From Mesoplasma tabanidae (GTDB lineage: Bacteria > Bacillota_I > Bacilli_A > Mycoplasmatales > Mycoplasmataceae), in the NCBI RefSeq assembly GCF_002804025.1, contig NZ_CP024969.1, positions 62,001 to 126,000 on the forward strand: a stretch of DNA of 64,000 nucleotides, given 5' to 3'. The position numbers and the translations under genes were made by a program. Below the pieces are notes generated by a model that worked only from the letters and a program-made list of their open reading frames with translations, was not told where the DNA came from and searched no databases. Below, piece by piece: positions 14,711 through 20,576 of the stretch. Each line of letters opens with the position of its first letter. Within the stretch, counting starts at the first letter, position 1.

Positions 14711-15643
14711 ATGAGTAAATTAACCATAAAAGAACTTGTTAATAAATTTGATTTTGAAATTATTTCTGGTGCTGATCACATCAATAGCGAAATAACTGTT
14801 TATGGTTTAAATCGTGCAGGTTTAGAGTTAACAGGATATTTTAATGAAAAGGAAGATAAAAAGCATAAACGTGCTATTTTAATGTCTTCAAAGGAAAACA
14901 ATTATATGTCGCAATTCTCAGATAGCGAAGCTAGTGATAAGTATAAAAGCTTAATTAAAATGGGTTCACCAGCTATAATAATTACACAAAAATTTACTGA
15001 TGAAAGATTATCAAAAGTGGCAAAAGAATTAGATTTTCCATTGTTAAAAATTAATTACCCTTCAACAAGTGAATTAACTCAAAAAATATTGGATATTTAT
15101 GATTTATATTTTGCTCCAACAATTGAAGTTCATTCTACATTAATGAATATTTATGGTAAAGGTGTACTTATTTTTGGACAATCAGGAATTGGTAAATCAG
15201 AGGTATCTTTAGAGTTAATGAAAAAGAACCACTTATTTGTTGGTGATGATAGAATTGTTATTTCAAACAGAAATAGCGAATTATTTGGTAAGTCACATGC
15301 GCTTTTACAAAATTTAATTGAAGTAAGAGGAATTGGAATTATTGATATTTCCAAAGTACAAGGTCAACAATTAATTATGCCCGAAACAAAAATACATATG
15401 GGTATTGAATTATTTAAATTCCAAGAAGGTGGGATAGATAATACTGATAGATTAGGAAATGAATGAACTCAAAAAGATTTTTTAGGTTTAAAAATTCCGT
15501 ACTTAAGAGTCCCAGTTAGTGCTGGTCGAAACTTGGCTAATATTATTGAAGCAGCAGTTGGGCAATTAAAAGTTAATGAAAGTTCAGATGCACAAGATAT
15601 TATTGAATTATTAGCAAAAAGAAATAGTGAATTAGCAGAATAG
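14711..15643 (+). CDS. hprK: HPr kinase/phosphorylase
   Basis: 310 residues. HprK phosphorylates HPr on Ser46 and reverses it, linking sugar phosphotransfer to carbon state. The C-terminal catalytic half has the P-loop FGQSGIGKSE (about 154-163), the capping motif FVGDDRIVI, and the HprK signature LIEVRGIGIIDI (about 205-216). The N-terminal half is the usual less conserved lobe. TGA at 15463-15465 is Trp. It leads the hprK-lgt-trxB-lgt cluster; the next ATG is only 7 bases past the stop. Confidence 0.95.
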
Positions 15644-15650
15644 AGGAAAC

Positions 15651-17249
15651 ATGTGAAATCAATACCAAGATTTTTATAAATGAATAAATCATTCAAATAA
15701 AACACCTGAAGACATGCGTCTTCTTTTTGGTCTTGTTCCGGCTTATCCTGTATTTATGTTTTTAGGAATATGTTTAGTCATATTAGTAACAGTAATTCAA
15801 ATGAATAAAAGAAAAATTCCTTTGAGAGAATTGGAAATAGGAATTGTTATTATAGTGCCTATTGGAATAATCGGTGGTACTTTTTTTGGGAAAATATTTT
15901 TAAATAATTATCAAAGTTGAACAAACTTTTATAAAGTATTTTTCTTTTGACAACCAGGTATGTCCTTTTTTGGCGCACTAGCATTAGGATCAGCGGCAGG
16001 ATTTGGTTGGTTTTATAAAAGAAGTAAAACAACTCAAATTTCAATGTGAGTATACTTAGATTTGATATTGGTTAATATACTTTTAGGTCATGCATTAGGT
16101 AGATGAGGAAATTTGTACAATCAAGAAATATTAGGTAATCCTGTTAGTTATGAAAGCATTTCATGAATGCCTAGTTTTATTAGAAATAGATTATTTTATT
16201 TTCCACCGTTAATCAACTTTACAAATGTTTTAGACGGAAAAAGTTTGTATTCTGACCCAACTTGATGAGTAAGAATTTTTGATTCTAATGGTGTGTTAAA
16301 TACAGCTTATACAGATAATTTTAACTACAATGGACAGTCATTAACTGATATTATGAATAGTCAAATACAATATAGATCTCCATTATTTTTAATTGAAGGA
16401 TTAGGTAATATTGTTTTATGATTGTTAATAACATTTGGTGTTAGAAATATTAACAGATATGCAAACAAAAAAAATAATCCTTGAGTAATTACACCAGAAG
16501 CTTATCCTTGCTTATGAAATTCAAAATTTAAATCAATTTCTGAAAGTCAATTAAAAGATTGATACACATTAGCACCGGTTAAATATAAAAGAGTTAAAAT
16601 AGTAAATGAAACTGGTGAAACTTTTGAACTGACAATGAGTTTAAAGAGTGTTTGAAATAAAGCTTATTATTGAGTTGAACCTGACTATGAAGCTAACAAA
16701 AAAATGTATACTCAAATTGAAGAATGGAAAAACGATTTGTACACCGCAACTTTAAAATATCAAAATGATAAAAAACAGTTAAAAATAAAATTAGAAAAAA
16801 TGAAATCTGAATTTAATAAAAAATACAAGTTTACAAAGCAAAACTTACAAAAACAATTAATTATTGAATATAAAAATAATGTGGCCTTAGAAAAACAAAG
16901 AGTTAAAGAAAAACAAATCGAGTTTAATAATAAATTTACATTTGGTCAAAGACATTTAGGTATTAATCCATATGGAAGAGAACTTGAAAAAGCCAATAAT
17001 CCTAATGGATTTATAGTACCAAGATCTGGTGTATCTGCTGGTTGTTATATACTAGGTTATGGTATACTTAGAACAATATTAGAAACTCAAAGACAAGCAA
17101 CAGAATATATGATTCCTAATCATGCTATTGCAAACTTTATAGTCTTAAGTTTAATAATATTTACAGGAATTTTTATAATTGTTATGGTGCAATTTATAGT
17201 TCCATATAAATGAAGGGAAATTGGGTGGTTGTATGAAAAAACATACTAA
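15651..17249 (+). CDS. lgt: Lgt-family prolipoprotein diacylglyceryl transferase, divergent copy 1
   Basis: 532 residues, far longer than the usual 260-300. The membrane part has the Lgt signature GHALGRWGNLYNQEILG (about 147-163) and a late YGILRTILETQR block. The segment that normally reads GMSFHGG is GMSFFGA (103-109), so the essential histidine is Phe107; the family 'LYE' is LIE. Inserted before the last membrane helices is a 150-residue Lys/Glu-rich soluble stretch (about 350-440) that looks like a coiled coil. About fifteen TGA-Trp codons are bridged. It overlaps trxB by 17 bases. It could be a non-catalytic or altered paralogue of the second Lgt at 18197. Confidence 0.85.
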
Positions 17250-18168
17250 TGAAAACTTAAAAGATATTTTAATTATTGGTGGAGGCCCTGCTGGATTAAC
17301 TGCTGGAGTTTATGCAGCAAGAGCTGGAATGAAAACTATGATTTTAGAAAAAGAAGCACCTGGTGGAAAAATGGTTAAAACTGATACAATTGAGAATTAT
17401 CCTGGTTTTGATAGCATTAAAGGCCCAGACTTAGCTTTAAAAATGTATATGCAAGTAATTAACCTTGGTGCTGAATTTGTCTATGATGAAGTTATTGAAA
17501 TTGTAAAACACAAAGAAACTTTTATAGTAACTACCAGAAATGGTCAAACAATTGAATCTTTAAGTGTAATTGTAGCAACAGGAACATTAGAAAATAAATT
17601 AGGTATACCTGGTGAAGATCAACTATATGGAAAAGGTGTTAGTTATTGTGCAGTTTGTGATGGTGCTTTCCATAAAGGAAATCCAGTTGCAATTGTAGGT
17701 GGTGGTTATTCAGCAGTTGAAGAAGGAATTTATTTAAGTAAGTTTGTAAGCAAGTTATATGTTGTTGTAAGAAAAGACCACTTTAGAGTAGACGCAGTTA
17801 CTTTATCTAAATTAGAACAACTTGATAATGTTGAATTTGTAATGAATTCTATAGTAAAAAAAGTAAATGGAACTGATAAAGTAGAATCAGTTGAAATTGA
17901 AAATCTTGTTTCAAAAGAAATCAAAACAGTGCCTGTAACGGGTTTATTCCCTTATATAGGAGCAACACCAGTAACTCAATTCTTAGAAAATCTTAATTTA
18001 AATAAAAGCGAAGGTTATTTAAAAGGTGATGCTAAATTGAAATCAAATATTAAGGGTTTATTTATTGCTGGAGATGTTAGAGAAGTGCCATTAAGACAAA
18101 TTGCTATTGCTGCAGGAGATGGAGCATTAGCAGGTCAAATGGCTGTTAACTATGTACAAGAATTATAA
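17233..18168 (+). CDS. trxB: Thioredoxin reductase
   Basis: 311 residues; a flavoprotein that passes electrons from NAD(P)H to thioredoxin. FAD site GGGPAGLTAGVYAARAG (about 15-31), redox-active CAVCDG (about 140-145), second dinucleotide site GGGYSAVEEGIYLS and GLFIAGDVREVPLRQ at the C-terminus. The start is ATG 17233 with GGGTGG upstream rather than the TTG at 17221. The NADPH-phosphate loop is VVVRKDHFR where the family has HRRxxxR. It is flanked on both sides by Lgt paralogues and overlaps the first. Confidence 0.94.
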   Translation: MKKHTNENLKDILIIGGGPAGLTAGVYAARAGMKTMILEKEAPGGKMVKTDTIENYPGFDSIKGPDLALKMYMQVINLGAEFVYDEVIEIVKHKETFIVTTRNGQTIESLSVIVATGTLENKLGIPGEDQLYGKGVSYCAVCDGAFHKGNPVAIVGGGYSAVEEGIYLSKFVSKLYVVVRKDHFRVDAVTLSKLEQLDNVEFVMNSIVKKVNGTDKVESVEIENLVSKEIKTVPVTGLFPYIGATPVTQFLENLNLNKSEGYLKGDAKLKSNIKGLFIAGDVREVPLRQIAIAAGDGALAGQMAVNYVQEL

Positions 18169-18196
18169 TTTAATTTAAAAGAAAGGTAAGAACTAT

Positions 18197-19600
18197 ATGA
18201 AACTAAAAGAATTTAAAATTAATAAAATTCACTTTAATTTTAAACATGATAAATTAAAATGAATTTCAATAGGATTATGGGCATCGCTTTTTATTGTTGT
18301 TATAGTTCTTTTTTCAGTTTTCTGAGCTACCAAAAATGTTAATTGAACTCAAGGAGATAGTTTTTCTGAGCCGATACATTGAGGCGGAATTGATTCATCA
18401 TATGGAGGAATAGCAATATATCCAATGGCTATGACGCTTGGTATGATTGTAGCGATATTATTTACCTTGTATAAATTTTGAAAAAAAAATTTAAATGTAA
18501 CTGAACTTTCTATAGGTATAGCAATTTGTATACCTATTTCACTTATGGGAGCAAGTTTTTTTGGTAAATTAAATGCCGATGCACCAGGAGTTAATGCTAA
18601 TGGTGTTGGTTTTTGAGGACTTTTTGCTTTTTGAAATGCAGGCATGGCAATTCATGGTGGTGTGTATGGTGGATTGCTAGCTGGAGTTATTCTTTTTTAT
18701 TTTGTTGGTAAAAGATCAAAAACATCTATGTTAGTTTATGCTGATGCTATAGTGCCAAACATTCTTTTAGGACAAGCAATCGGTAGATGAGGAAATTTCT
18801 TTAATCATGAAGTTATGGGTGCACCAGTTGGTGTAGTTGCTTATGCGGATGCTCCTGATAAGTGAGGAACAATAAATGATGTTAATTGAGGTGCAGTTCA
18901 ATCTCATTATAAATTTTTACCAAATTGAATTTCTAGAAATTTAATGGTTGAAGCAAAAACCGATGGTTTTCTTTCTAATGGGGTTCATTTTGAAAAAGGC
19001 GATTTAGTTCAACTATCACCAATTTTTCTTTACGAATCTTTAAGTTTGCTAGCAGCTTGAGTAATAATAACTTTCATTATTCCTAATATAACTAAATGAA
19101 TAAGCAAAAAACCTTGAAAAGTTGAGACAAATAAATATAACTACAGTCTATCATTTTCTATTAAACAATGATTCATGCCTTGAAAAAAATCAACTGATGA
19201 AATTCAATCAGCAAGAGATATTTGAAATTTAGCATATTTTAGAAACATTGATGAAGATGCAAAACAAGAATATTTAAAAAGCTTAGAATTTAATAGAAGT
19301 AAATACTTAAAGCCAAAAGAAATTAATAAAGCAAATAAATTAAATGATTTTATATCAACAAAAGCTGGAGTTGAATGTTTTGCTTATTTCTTTGCTTGAA
19401 ATTTTGTAAGATTTTTCTTAGAACTGAGTCGACCTGATGATCATTTATTTGTTATGTATGATAAACCTCTATCATTATCTTTAATATTAATATCAGCTTT
19501 TATAGGTCTAATAGGAATGATTGCATCGCAATATTGATTACCAATTTTATTTAGAAAAAATGGTTATTTATACGAAAAAGAATATTTTTCATTAAATTAA
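18197..19600 (+). CDS. lgt: Prolipoprotein diacylglyceryl transferase, copy 2
   Basis: 467 residues. Lgt moves diacylglycerol from phosphatidylglycerol onto the lipobox cysteine of exported prolipoproteins. The catalytic histidine motif is kept (MAIHGGVYGG, H153), with GQAIGRWGNFFNHEVMG, SPIFLYESL and the C-terminal FVRFFLELSRPDD. This is the copy expected to be active. It has an N-terminal cytosolic stretch and a roughly 120-residue insertion before the last helices. At least twenty TGA codons read as Trp. GAAAGG lies upstream of the ATG. Its substrates in this window would include the lipoproteins at 41253 and 56627. Confidence 0.92.
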
Positions 19601-19622: not shown

Positions 19623-20576
19623 ATGTCGTTTGCATTAACAGTTAAAGAAGAAGTAATTTCACATATTTTTGATGATGACCTAGGAAAAGCTTTTTTATCA
19701 GGTTTTATTAAATATAACGGAGATTTTATTTGAGGTTCAGGGAGCGAAAAATTAAAATTAACATCAATTAGCAATAAGATAGCTAGAAGTATTTTTGGTC
19801 TTTGTAAAAAAATGTTTGATGGGCATATTGAAATTTCAGTTTCTCAAACACAAACTTTAAAACAAAATAAAACATTTCAAATAACATTAATAGGTAAAAT
19901 ATCTGAATTTTTAAAATCTTTAAATATTTGGGATCTAAATGATATTAAAATTATTGAGTTTAAACCTTTAAAACAACAAAAGAATAAGGAAGAATTAACA
20001 AAGTTAAAGCGTGCTTATATGGCAGGTGTATTTGTTGCAGTTGGATCCGTTAATTCTCCTGAAACCACTAATTATCATCTTGAATTACAATTTAAAGAAG
20101 AAGAGTCAAGTTTGTATATTATAGAATTAATGAATAAGTATGGCTTTGATTTTAAAACATTAAAAAGAAATGAAAAGTTATTTATTTGCTATATAAAAAA
20201 AGCAATTATGGTTTCAGATTTTTTAAAGTTTATTGATGCGTATCAAGCTGTTATGAACTTTGAAAATGAAAGAATTATGAGAGACGTTTCTAATAATGTA
20301 AATAGAGTAAACAACATTGATATTTCTAATGAAAAGAAGACGTTATCAGCGGGTTTGAAACAAATTGATCAAATAAGTAAAATTCAAGCCAATTTAGCAA
20401 CTAAACGACTTTCTGAAAAAGCAGCATACCTTTGTGATCTTAGAATTCAAAATCCAAATGCATCCTACGCTGAGCTTACAGAATTAATGAATGAAAATGG
20501 ATATGAAATAACAAAATCAGGAGTAAGTAACTTATTTAAGATAATCGAAAAATTAAGTTTAGAATTTAAAAATTAG
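19623..20576 (+). CDS. whiA: DNA-binding protein WhiA
   Basis: 317 residues. WhiA combines a LAGLIDADG-like N-terminal fold with a C-terminal helix-turn-helix; in Firmicutes it affects cell division and chromosome segregation and in Streptomyces sporulation. Visible are the N-terminal SFALTVKEEVISHIF, the central RAYMAGVFVAVGSVNSPETTNYHLEL and the C-terminal RIQNPNASYAELTELMN...ITKSGVSNLF helix-turn-helix. A strong AGGAGGGAG site precedes the ATG, and one TGA-Trp (about 19731) links the N-terminus to the rest. Confidence 0.93.

What the first reader, a model, noticed from the sequence alone, without database searches (positions are those of the whole stretch)
15651..19600. Two Lgt paralogues around trxB, the first without the essential HGG motif
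Copy 2 has AIHGGVYGG, but copy 1 has SFFGALALG: the histidine that is essential in E. coli Lgt (His103) is Phe107. Copy 1 keeps GRWGN and the C-terminal Arg-Glu block and adds a long charged coiled-coil-like stretch. It may be a regulatory partner of copy 2, use another acyl donor, or be inactive. The thioredoxin reductase between them overlaps copy 1, hinting at joint expression.
Basis: partly seen in the sequence, partly recalled or inferred. Interest (0 to 1): 0.5.

Follow-up and report, generated by a model that had tools for sequence, protein, structure and literature searches.

The report
Old paired Lgt enzymes, split residues
This bacterium carries two versions of an enzyme that fastens proteins to the cell membrane; the version said to lack an essential histidine shows no decay, keeps most other important residues, and is a long-conserved, probably working variant whose twin departs at a different important residue.

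Summary
In detail: copy 1 (15651-17249) has Phe107 at the E. coli Lgt His103 position, copy 2 (18197-19600) has His153, with trxB between. The premise that this His is essential does not carry over: in 64 Lgts read from other families of the order it is Q 37, H 15, E 9, L 2, I 1. Copy 1 sits in the ancestral lgt slot (hprK-lgt-trxB); copy 2 is the inserted duplicate. Both are found in 60 of 60 family genomes. Copy 1 has Phe in 45 of 46 genomes (one Tyr) and His in the 14 of genus g5; R143, N146, E151, G154, R239 and R246 are unchanged in the 46, and dN/dS is 0.12-0.19, so copy 1 is not decaying. Copy 2 is odd elsewhere: Trp at Tyr235 in 60 of 60. Each paralogue thus departs at a different E. 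coli-critical residue. Best reading: two active, specialised diacylglyceryl transferases; activity is untested. The duplication was published in 2011 (PMC3053259), with one copy frameshifted in a M. mycoides strain. I found no description of the mirrored 103/235 split or the shared insert in the passages I saw. A role as the missing mycoplasma N-acyltransferase is not excluded.

The parts
15651..17249 (+). lgt copy 1 (532 aa, code 4), Lgt-family membrane protein in the ancestral hprK-lgt-trxB slot
   Evidence: ORF; Pfam PF01790 96.5 bits; fold match to E. coli Lgt 5azb Z 16.5 on a low-confidence model; slot
15969..15971 (+). Phe107 codon, at the position of E. coli His103
   Evidence: alignment of 224 Lgts
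16089..16091 (+). His147 codon (E. coli position 139), histidine found only in the window genus among copy 1s
   Evidence: H in 7 of 46, Q in 39 of 46
16098..16112 (+). GRWGN signature (residues 150-154; Arg151 = E. coli Arg143)
16464..17024 (+). TM5-TM6 insert of copy 1 (limits approximate): KKNNPW start, VWNKAYYW, predicted helical hairpin, NNPNGF end; cytoplasmic by recalled E. coli topology
   Evidence: loop 205 aa against 16 in E. coli; helices 346-387 and 395-435 in the model, block pLDDT 37-67
17058..17093 (+). Tyr470-Arg474-Glu478-Arg481 (E. coli Y235, R239, E243, R246)
17233..17249 (+). 17-nt overlap of copy 1 end and trxB start (ATG inside the YEK codons)
   Evidence: ATG in 60 of 60 family genomes, frame open through trxB in 56 of 60
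17233..18168 (+). trxB, thioredoxin reductase
   Evidence: TIGR01292 343.9 bits against cut-off 343.45
18197..19600 (+). lgt copy 2 (467 aa, code 4), duplicate inserted between trxB and whiA
   Evidence: PF01790 97.4 bits; 5azb Z 15.5 on a low-confidence model
18653..18655 (+). His153 codon (E. coli His103) of copy 2
19397..19399 (+). Trp401 codon (TGA), at the position of E. coli Tyr235
   Evidence: Trp in 60 of 60 copy 2s
19103..19360 (+). TM5-TM6 insert of copy 2 (limits approximate)
   Evidence: loop 105 aa
14711..15643 (+). hprK, upstream anchor of the locus
   Evidence: ORF; gene name recalled, no family search run; used as similarity query
19623..20576 (+). whiA, downstream anchor of the locus
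   Evidence: ORF; gene name recalled, no family search run; used as similarity query

Best explanation
Copy 1 and copy 2 are an ancient pair of Lgt-type diacylglyceryl transferases that have divided the work. Both keep the core that handles phosphatidylglycerol (E. coli Y26, G99, D129, R143, N146, E151, G154, E202, R239, R246). They differ at two residues of the cavity where lipid and prolipoprotein meet: position 103 (aromatic in copy 1, His in copy 2) and position 235 (Tyr in copy 1, Trp in copy 2). Copy 1, in the ancestral lgt slot, is most likely active: with Arg143 and Arg239 activating the lipid, an aromatic residue at the start of TM3 helps place the acceptor peptide, and no His base is needed. 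Copy 2 is the derived duplicate with a reshaped pocket. The likely division is by prolipoprotein or by lipid donor. SHOWN: duplication, slot, conservation, selection, residue split, shared insert. INFERRED: that either copy is active, and what is divided.
For: Both copies found in 60 of 60 family genomes. Copy 1 position 103 is F in 45 and Y in 1 of 46, His in all 14 copy 1s of genus g5; Y26, G99, D129, R143, N146, E151, G154, E202, R239 and R246 unchanged in all 46. Column 103 is among the 46 least variable of 420 copy 1 columns, at mean pairwise identity 49%. dN/dS within the genus 0.12-0.19 for copy 1, 0.07-0.17 for copy 2. Sole Lgts do without His103: other-family Lgts have Q37 H15 E9 L2 I1 (58 of the 64 come from genomes for which searches show one gene), and the three main Bacilli Lgts with Tyr103 come from genomes with one match each (G323, G334, G347). 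hprK-lgt-trxB-whiA with one lgt at that spot in 6 loci of f5, f9 and f3. Position and best bits agree with the residue classes in all 45 non-g5 genomes tested. LspA in 59 of 60, so the pathway is present.
Against: No activity is shown. In E. coli H103A/N/Q/R/Y and Y235F/L/S fail to complement (PMC4728403, passages); Phe at 103 and Trp at 235 were not among the changes listed. Arg73 is lost in both copies, E243 is Asp in 21 of 46 copy 1s and Tyr235 is Ile in 4. Neither copy reaches the curated TIGR00544 cut-off (95.8 and 95.2 against 118.9). Two of 120 family genes look damaged: copy 2 of G198 is split over two frames (L113) and copy 1 of G144 is short at its start (L124). One copy is reported frameshifted in M. 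mycoides SC PG1, barring a sequencing error (PMC3053259, passage). dS is 0.6-1.4, near saturation, so dN/dS is rough. No substrate difference was tested.
Confidence: 0.52

Rival explanations
1. The two copies form an obligate hetero-oligomer, or copy 1 is a catalytically silent partner that positions or regulates copy 2 through the inserts between TM5 and TM6.
For: Among the order's sequences read, Phe or Tyr at position 103 was seen only in genomes that also have copy 2: 46 of 46. Each copy departs at a different E. coli-critical residue. Both have long inserts, the longer one with a predicted helical hairpin at low confidence.
Against: A silent partner would not need Y26, R143, N146, E151, G154, R239 and R246 kept in 46 of 46. 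Tyr103 occurs in the sole Lgt of three Bacilli. In g5 the two genes are far apart. No interaction was tested; one copy is reported frameshifted in M. mycoides SC PG1.
Confidence: 0.18
2. Plain redundancy or dosage: both copies do the same job and the residue differences are neutral alternatives.
For: Position 103 varies among sole Lgts; PMC3053259 reports loss of one copy in a strain; one of 60 copy 2s here is split (L113).
Against: Both genes are found in 60 of 60 genomes of 0.7-2.2 Mb. Five positions separate the copies at 80% or more on each side, and the split has held at about 50% mean identity within each copy.
Confidence: 0.15
3. One paralogue has a different acyl chemistry, for example N-acylation of the lipoprotein cysteine, filling the place of the missing Lnt.
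For: A review reports signs of N-acylation in M. mycoides and says an unknown enzyme with Lnt activity exists in mycoplasmas (PMC4814563, passages). The Lnt domain PF00795 was found in 0 of 60 family genomes.
Against: M. pneumoniae and M. genitalium are reported triacylated (same passages); by recall they belong to a family with one Lgt, so duplication is not required. The same review calls triacylation in mycoplasmas controversial, and another says many mycoplasma lipoproteins are not N-acylated (PMC6080569, passages). The residues kept are those for phosphatidylglycerol; Lnt uses another fold and an acyl-enzyme (recalled).
Confidence: 0.08
4. Copy 1 is a decaying pseudo-enzyme.
For: Loss of an E. 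coli-essential residue; one of 60 copy 1s is short at its start (L124).
Against: No stop in any of 7 genus members, dN/dS 0.12-0.19, invariant core in 46 of 46.
Confidence: 0.02

Closest known systems
E. coli Lgt (PDB 5azb, 5azc; PF01790)
   Same: Lgt core fold (Z 16.5 and 15.5 on low-confidence models), signature GRxGN...G, Y26, R143, N146, E151, G154, R239, R246.
   Different: His103 is Phe in copy 1; Tyr235 is Trp in copy 2; Arg73 is Thr or Ser in both; TM5-TM6 loop of 205 and 105 residues instead of 16.
Two-lgt arrangement of Mycoplasma mycoides subsp. capri (MLC_8480, MLC_8500), PMC3053259; also two Lgt genes in Spiroplasma mirum and S. eriocheiris, PMC9666726
   Different: The passages seen do not discuss residues 103 or 235, the inserts or the ancestral slot.
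Second Lgt of Mycobacterium smegmatis (MSMEG_5408), as cited in PMC13251419
   Same: A paralogue with changed E. coli-critical residues beside a main Lgt (passage seen).
   [quoted passage not shown] here both of those residues are intact.

Membership tests
Lgt family PF01790 | Pfam gathering score | tested here: met
   96.5 and 97.4 bits against 24.9
Lgt family PF01790 | Signature G142-R143-x-G145-N146 ... E151 ... G154 | tested here: met
   60 of 60 copy 1s and 60 of 60 copy 2s
Lgt family PF01790 | Lgt fold | tested here: met
   5azb Z 16.5 (225 residues, rmsd 3.9) and Z 15.5 (256 residues, rmsd 4.4), next rows 4.9 and 7.4, on low-confidence models, mean pLDDT 56 and 53
Lgt equivalog TIGR00544 | Curated equivalog cut-off | tested here: not met
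   95.8 and 95.2 bits against 118.9, both copies alike
E. coli-type Lgt | His103 in the HGG motif | tested here: not met
   Phe107 in copy 1; met in copy 2. Not a defining feature of the family in this order
E. coli-type Lgt | Tyr235 | tested here: not met
   Trp401 in copy 2; met in copy 1
Lgt | Diacylglyceryl transfer to prolipoprotein | not testable with these tools
   needs biochemistry
Lnt (apolipoprotein N-acyltransferase) | CN_hydrolase domain PF00795 in the paralogues | tested here: not met
   0 of 60 family genomes hold it; only PF01790 found in the two proteins

The most novel reading that the evidence does not exclude
The mirrored departures (aromatic 103 with Tyr235 in copy 1, His103 with Trp235 in copy 2) mark a two-enzyme lipoprotein system of the Spiroplasma-Mesoplasma-M. 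mycoides group. One member has moved to a second modification of the lipoprotein cysteine and supplies the N-acylation for which no mycoplasma enzyme is known, or the two must act as a heteromer, so that neither works alone.
Probability: 0.12. Interest if true: 0.75.

Novelty: new variant of a known kind. Interest (0 to 1): 0.33.

Why it matters
Whether the TM3 histidine of Lgt is a catalytic base is unsettled. A clade that fixed Phe there while keeping most of the rest of the site gives a natural test. The pair also offers a bounded place to look for the unidentified N-acylating enzyme of mycoplasmas. A minimal-cell chromosome paper lists lgt beside trx in JCVI-syn3A, with a proteomics count of 55 for lgt (PMC8339304, passages; it does not say which copy), so the question bears on minimal-cell lipoprotein biology too.

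Tried and rejected
Decay of copy 1: rejected. A substitute pocket histidine: His147 (E. coli 139) is in all 7 window-genus copy 1s, which also show Gln instead of His at E. coli position 150, but not in the other 39, so it cannot explain Phe in general. Copy 1 as the newcomer: rejected by gene order. Joint expression as a clue to a special role: the ATG stands in the YEK codons in 60 of 60, also in three g3 genomes without trxB between the copies, so it is bound to the protein motif.

Where the g5 copy 1s belong: the tree puts them beside copy 2 with weak support (87/45). Holding all copy 1s together is not rejected (AU p 0.4); holding copy 1 plus f9 together is disfavoured (p 0.0225). So that Phe replaced His inside one copy 1 lineage is likely but not shown.

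Circularity: my copy 1 and copy 2 classes were first drawn by the residue at column 235, so Trp 60 of 60 would be true by definition. Position and best bits, taken independently and without the window, agree: 45 of 45 non-g5 copy 2s beside whiA, 45 of 45 non-g5 copy 1s and 13 of 14 g5 copy 1s beside hprK, 59 of 59 of each copy closest by bits to the window copy of its class. In the one exception (L128) no hprK was found in the stretch fetched. A tree without columns 103 and 235 recovers copy 1 non-g5 at 100/99 and copy 2 plus f5B at 99/96.

Dropped or partial: L113 (copy 2 of G198, two frames) and L124 (copy 1 of G144, short start) are left out of trees, lengths and N-terminal counts but counted in the residue table, where L113 has gaps at 239 and 243 and L124 at 26-99. 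The careful tree used 81 of 222 rows. Of 298 order genomes only fetched loci were read: 64 sequences of other families in the main table, 30 of them the best-scoring matches, and 18 more loci (some the same gene twice). f5 has 9 genomes: the His103-Trp235 copy was read in 9, the Tyr235 copy (Q or E at 103) in 8.

Weak spots: AlphaFold alignments held 5 sequences and gave low confidence; no model coordinates were available for pocket distances. No PDB chain matched copy 1 alone; a profile of both copies found only E. coli Lgt. No phage record matched. That both copies are retained and essential in JCVI-syn3A is something I recall; searches found no text for it, and the passages seen for it do not settle it. 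Paper searches for the duplication and the residues; their hits were seen as listings, a few as passages. Supplements could not be opened.
Full report
WHAT IS THERE. The locus reads hprK (14711-15643), lgt copy 1 (15651-17249), trxB (17233-18168), lgt copy 2 (18197-19600), whiA (19623-20576), all on the plus strand under code 4 (the names hprK and whiA are recalled). Both lgt products belong to Pfam LGT, and the 847-kb genome shows no third one. Against E. coli Lgt (NC_000913) copy 1 has Phe107 and copy 2 His153 at His103.

IS THE HISTIDINE ESSENTIAL? In E. coli, H103A/N/Q/R/Y do not complement (PMC4728403, passages); Phe was not in that list. Across bacteria the residue varies: PMC13251419 (passages) reports Y, W or F in some species. 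Here, 64 Lgts from other families of the same order have Q 37, H 15, E 9, L 2, I 1, and 30 main Bacilli Lgts have H 22, Q 5, Y 3. Of the 64, 58 come from genomes for which searches show one gene (sometimes as two adjacent pieces); the other 6 are f5. The three Tyr103 Bacilli (G323, G334, G347) have one match each. Missing His is therefore no sign of inactivity by itself.

CONSERVATION IN THE FAMILY. All 60 genomes of the window's family hold both copies, and I read both genes in all 60; two of the 120 look damaged (copy 2 of G198 in two frames, copy 1 of G144 short at its start). Copy 1 falls in two sets: 46 genomes with F (45) or Y (1), and 14 genomes of genus g5 with His. In the 46, Y26, G99, D129, G142, R143, G145, N146, N149, E151, G154, E202, R239 and R246 are unchanged; G104 is A once; Y235 is I in 4; E243 is D in 21; R73 is S or T in all. 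Column 103 is among the 46 least variable of 420 columns while mean pairwise identity is 49%. dN/dS between the window and six relatives of its genus is 0.12-0.19 for copy 1, 0.07-0.17 for copy 2 and 0.03-0.09 for the three neighbours, with dS 0.6-1.4. This is purifying selection, not decay, though looser than on the neighbours.

COPY 2 IS ODD TOO. Copy 2 has His103 in 60 of 60 and Trp at Tyr235 in 60 of 60 (independent check of classes). In E. coli, Y235F/L/S fail and Y235T is partial; Trp was not listed. Each paralogue thus departs at a residue that E. coli needs, and not the same one. Five positions separate the copies at 80% or more on each side: E. coli 94, 103, 147, 198 and 235. The two-copy f5 family shows a related pattern: a His103-Trp235 copy read in 9 of 9 genomes, and a Tyr235 copy with E or Q at 103 read in 8 of 9. 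The f9 family has one copy, His103-Tyr235, read in 5 of 5 genomes.

ORIGIN. In 6 loci of f5, f9 and one f3 genome the order hprK-lgt-trxB-whiA has one lgt there. Among 71 loci of other families of the order (those 6 included; some genomes twice, most with short flanks) both hprK and trxB lie near lgt in 31, and at least one does in 58; in main Bacilli both do in 15 of 30. Copy 1 is beside hprK in 59 of 60 (not found in L128, window). Copy 2 lies beside whiA in 46 of 60, in 3 of them (g3) without trxB before it, and elsewhere in the 14 g5 genomes. The careful tree, without columns 103 and 235, gives Phe/Tyr copy 1s as one clade (100/99) and copy 2 with f5B as one (99/96); the place of g5 copy 1 is open. 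The duplication itself was published in 2011 for M. mycoides subsp. [quoted passage not shown] Two Lgt genes are also stated for S. mirum and S. eriocheiris (PMC9666726, passage). Which copy is broken in PG1 I could not establish. Two relatives here are named by record: L217 Spiroplasma sp. TIUS-1 and L218 a Spiroplasma MAG.

SHARED UNUSUAL PART. Between TM5 and TM6 (cytoplasmic side by recalled E. coli topology) both copies carry an insert: loop medians by genus are 114-207 residues in copy 1 and 90-123 in copy 2, and 118-136 in f5 and f9, against 16 in E. coli and 17-18 in main Bacilli. Of 64 other-family sequences 9 have a loop over 30 residues: the six f5, two f9 and one f6. Shared marks are KPW at the start, WxxAY in the middle and an NNP-like end. 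In copy 1 it is predicted as a strand pair and a long helical hairpin, at low confidence.

MECHANISM. Models of both copies match E. coli Lgt best (Z 16.5 and 15.5; next rows 4.9 and 7.4). With the lipid-binding residues intact, transfer of a diacylglyceryl group is the likely reaction of both. Position 103 stands at the start of TM3, where PMC4728403 proposes that the peptide acceptor binds, and Tyr235 touches the lipid glycerol. Changes there fit a shift in substrate preference. That is inference.

PATHWAY. LspA is found in 59 of 60 genomes (the miss is G204, 85% complete); the Lnt domain in 0 of 60, with the same search ringing in 12 of 14 control genomes. One review reports triacylated lipoproteins in M. 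pneumoniae and M. genitalium and signs of N-acylation in M. mycoides without a known enzyme, while calling the matter controversial (PMC4814563, passages); another stresses that many mycoplasma lipoproteins are not N-acylated (PMC6080569, passages). This leaves room for the bold reading but does not support it directly, since M. pneumoniae and M. genitalium, by recall, belong to a family with a single Lgt.

VERDICT. A real, conserved paralogue pair, of moderate interest: known as a duplication; the mirrored active-site departures and the shared insert are the part I did not find described in the listings and passages.

Noticed in passing
G055, G069, G161 (g31) and G078, G090, G096, G099, G128, G137, G173 (g35): All listed genomes of two genera in family f3 have no LGT match; 16 of 298 order genomes lack one.
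   Followed up: no
L081, L083, L087: Three genomes of genus g3 lack trxB between the two lgt copies but keep both lgt genes and the ATG inside copy 1.
   Followed up: partly
L109, L111, L115, L117, L119, L121, L123, L125, L127, L129, L131, L133, L135: In genus g5 copy 2 is 517-643 aa with a long C-terminal part and lies away from the hprK locus.
   Followed up: no
18197-18400: Copy 2 of the window genus has an extra N-terminal hydrophobic helix (7 of 7 in the genus, 11 of 59 copy 2s in the family).
   Followed up: partly
L206-L214: Second Lgt-like proteins of nine Bacilli have Cys at E. coli positions 146 and 151 and Y or L at 103: another divergent Lgt-like group.
   Followed up: no
16089-16091 and 16122-16124: Window-genus copy 1s swap two conserved residues relative to the other 39 non-g5 copy 1s: His for Gln at E. 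coli 139 and Gln for His at 150.
   Followed up: partly
L113 (G198) and L124 (G144): One g5 copy 2 is split over two frames and one g5 copy 1 is short at its start; damage or sequence error not resolved.
   Followed up: no
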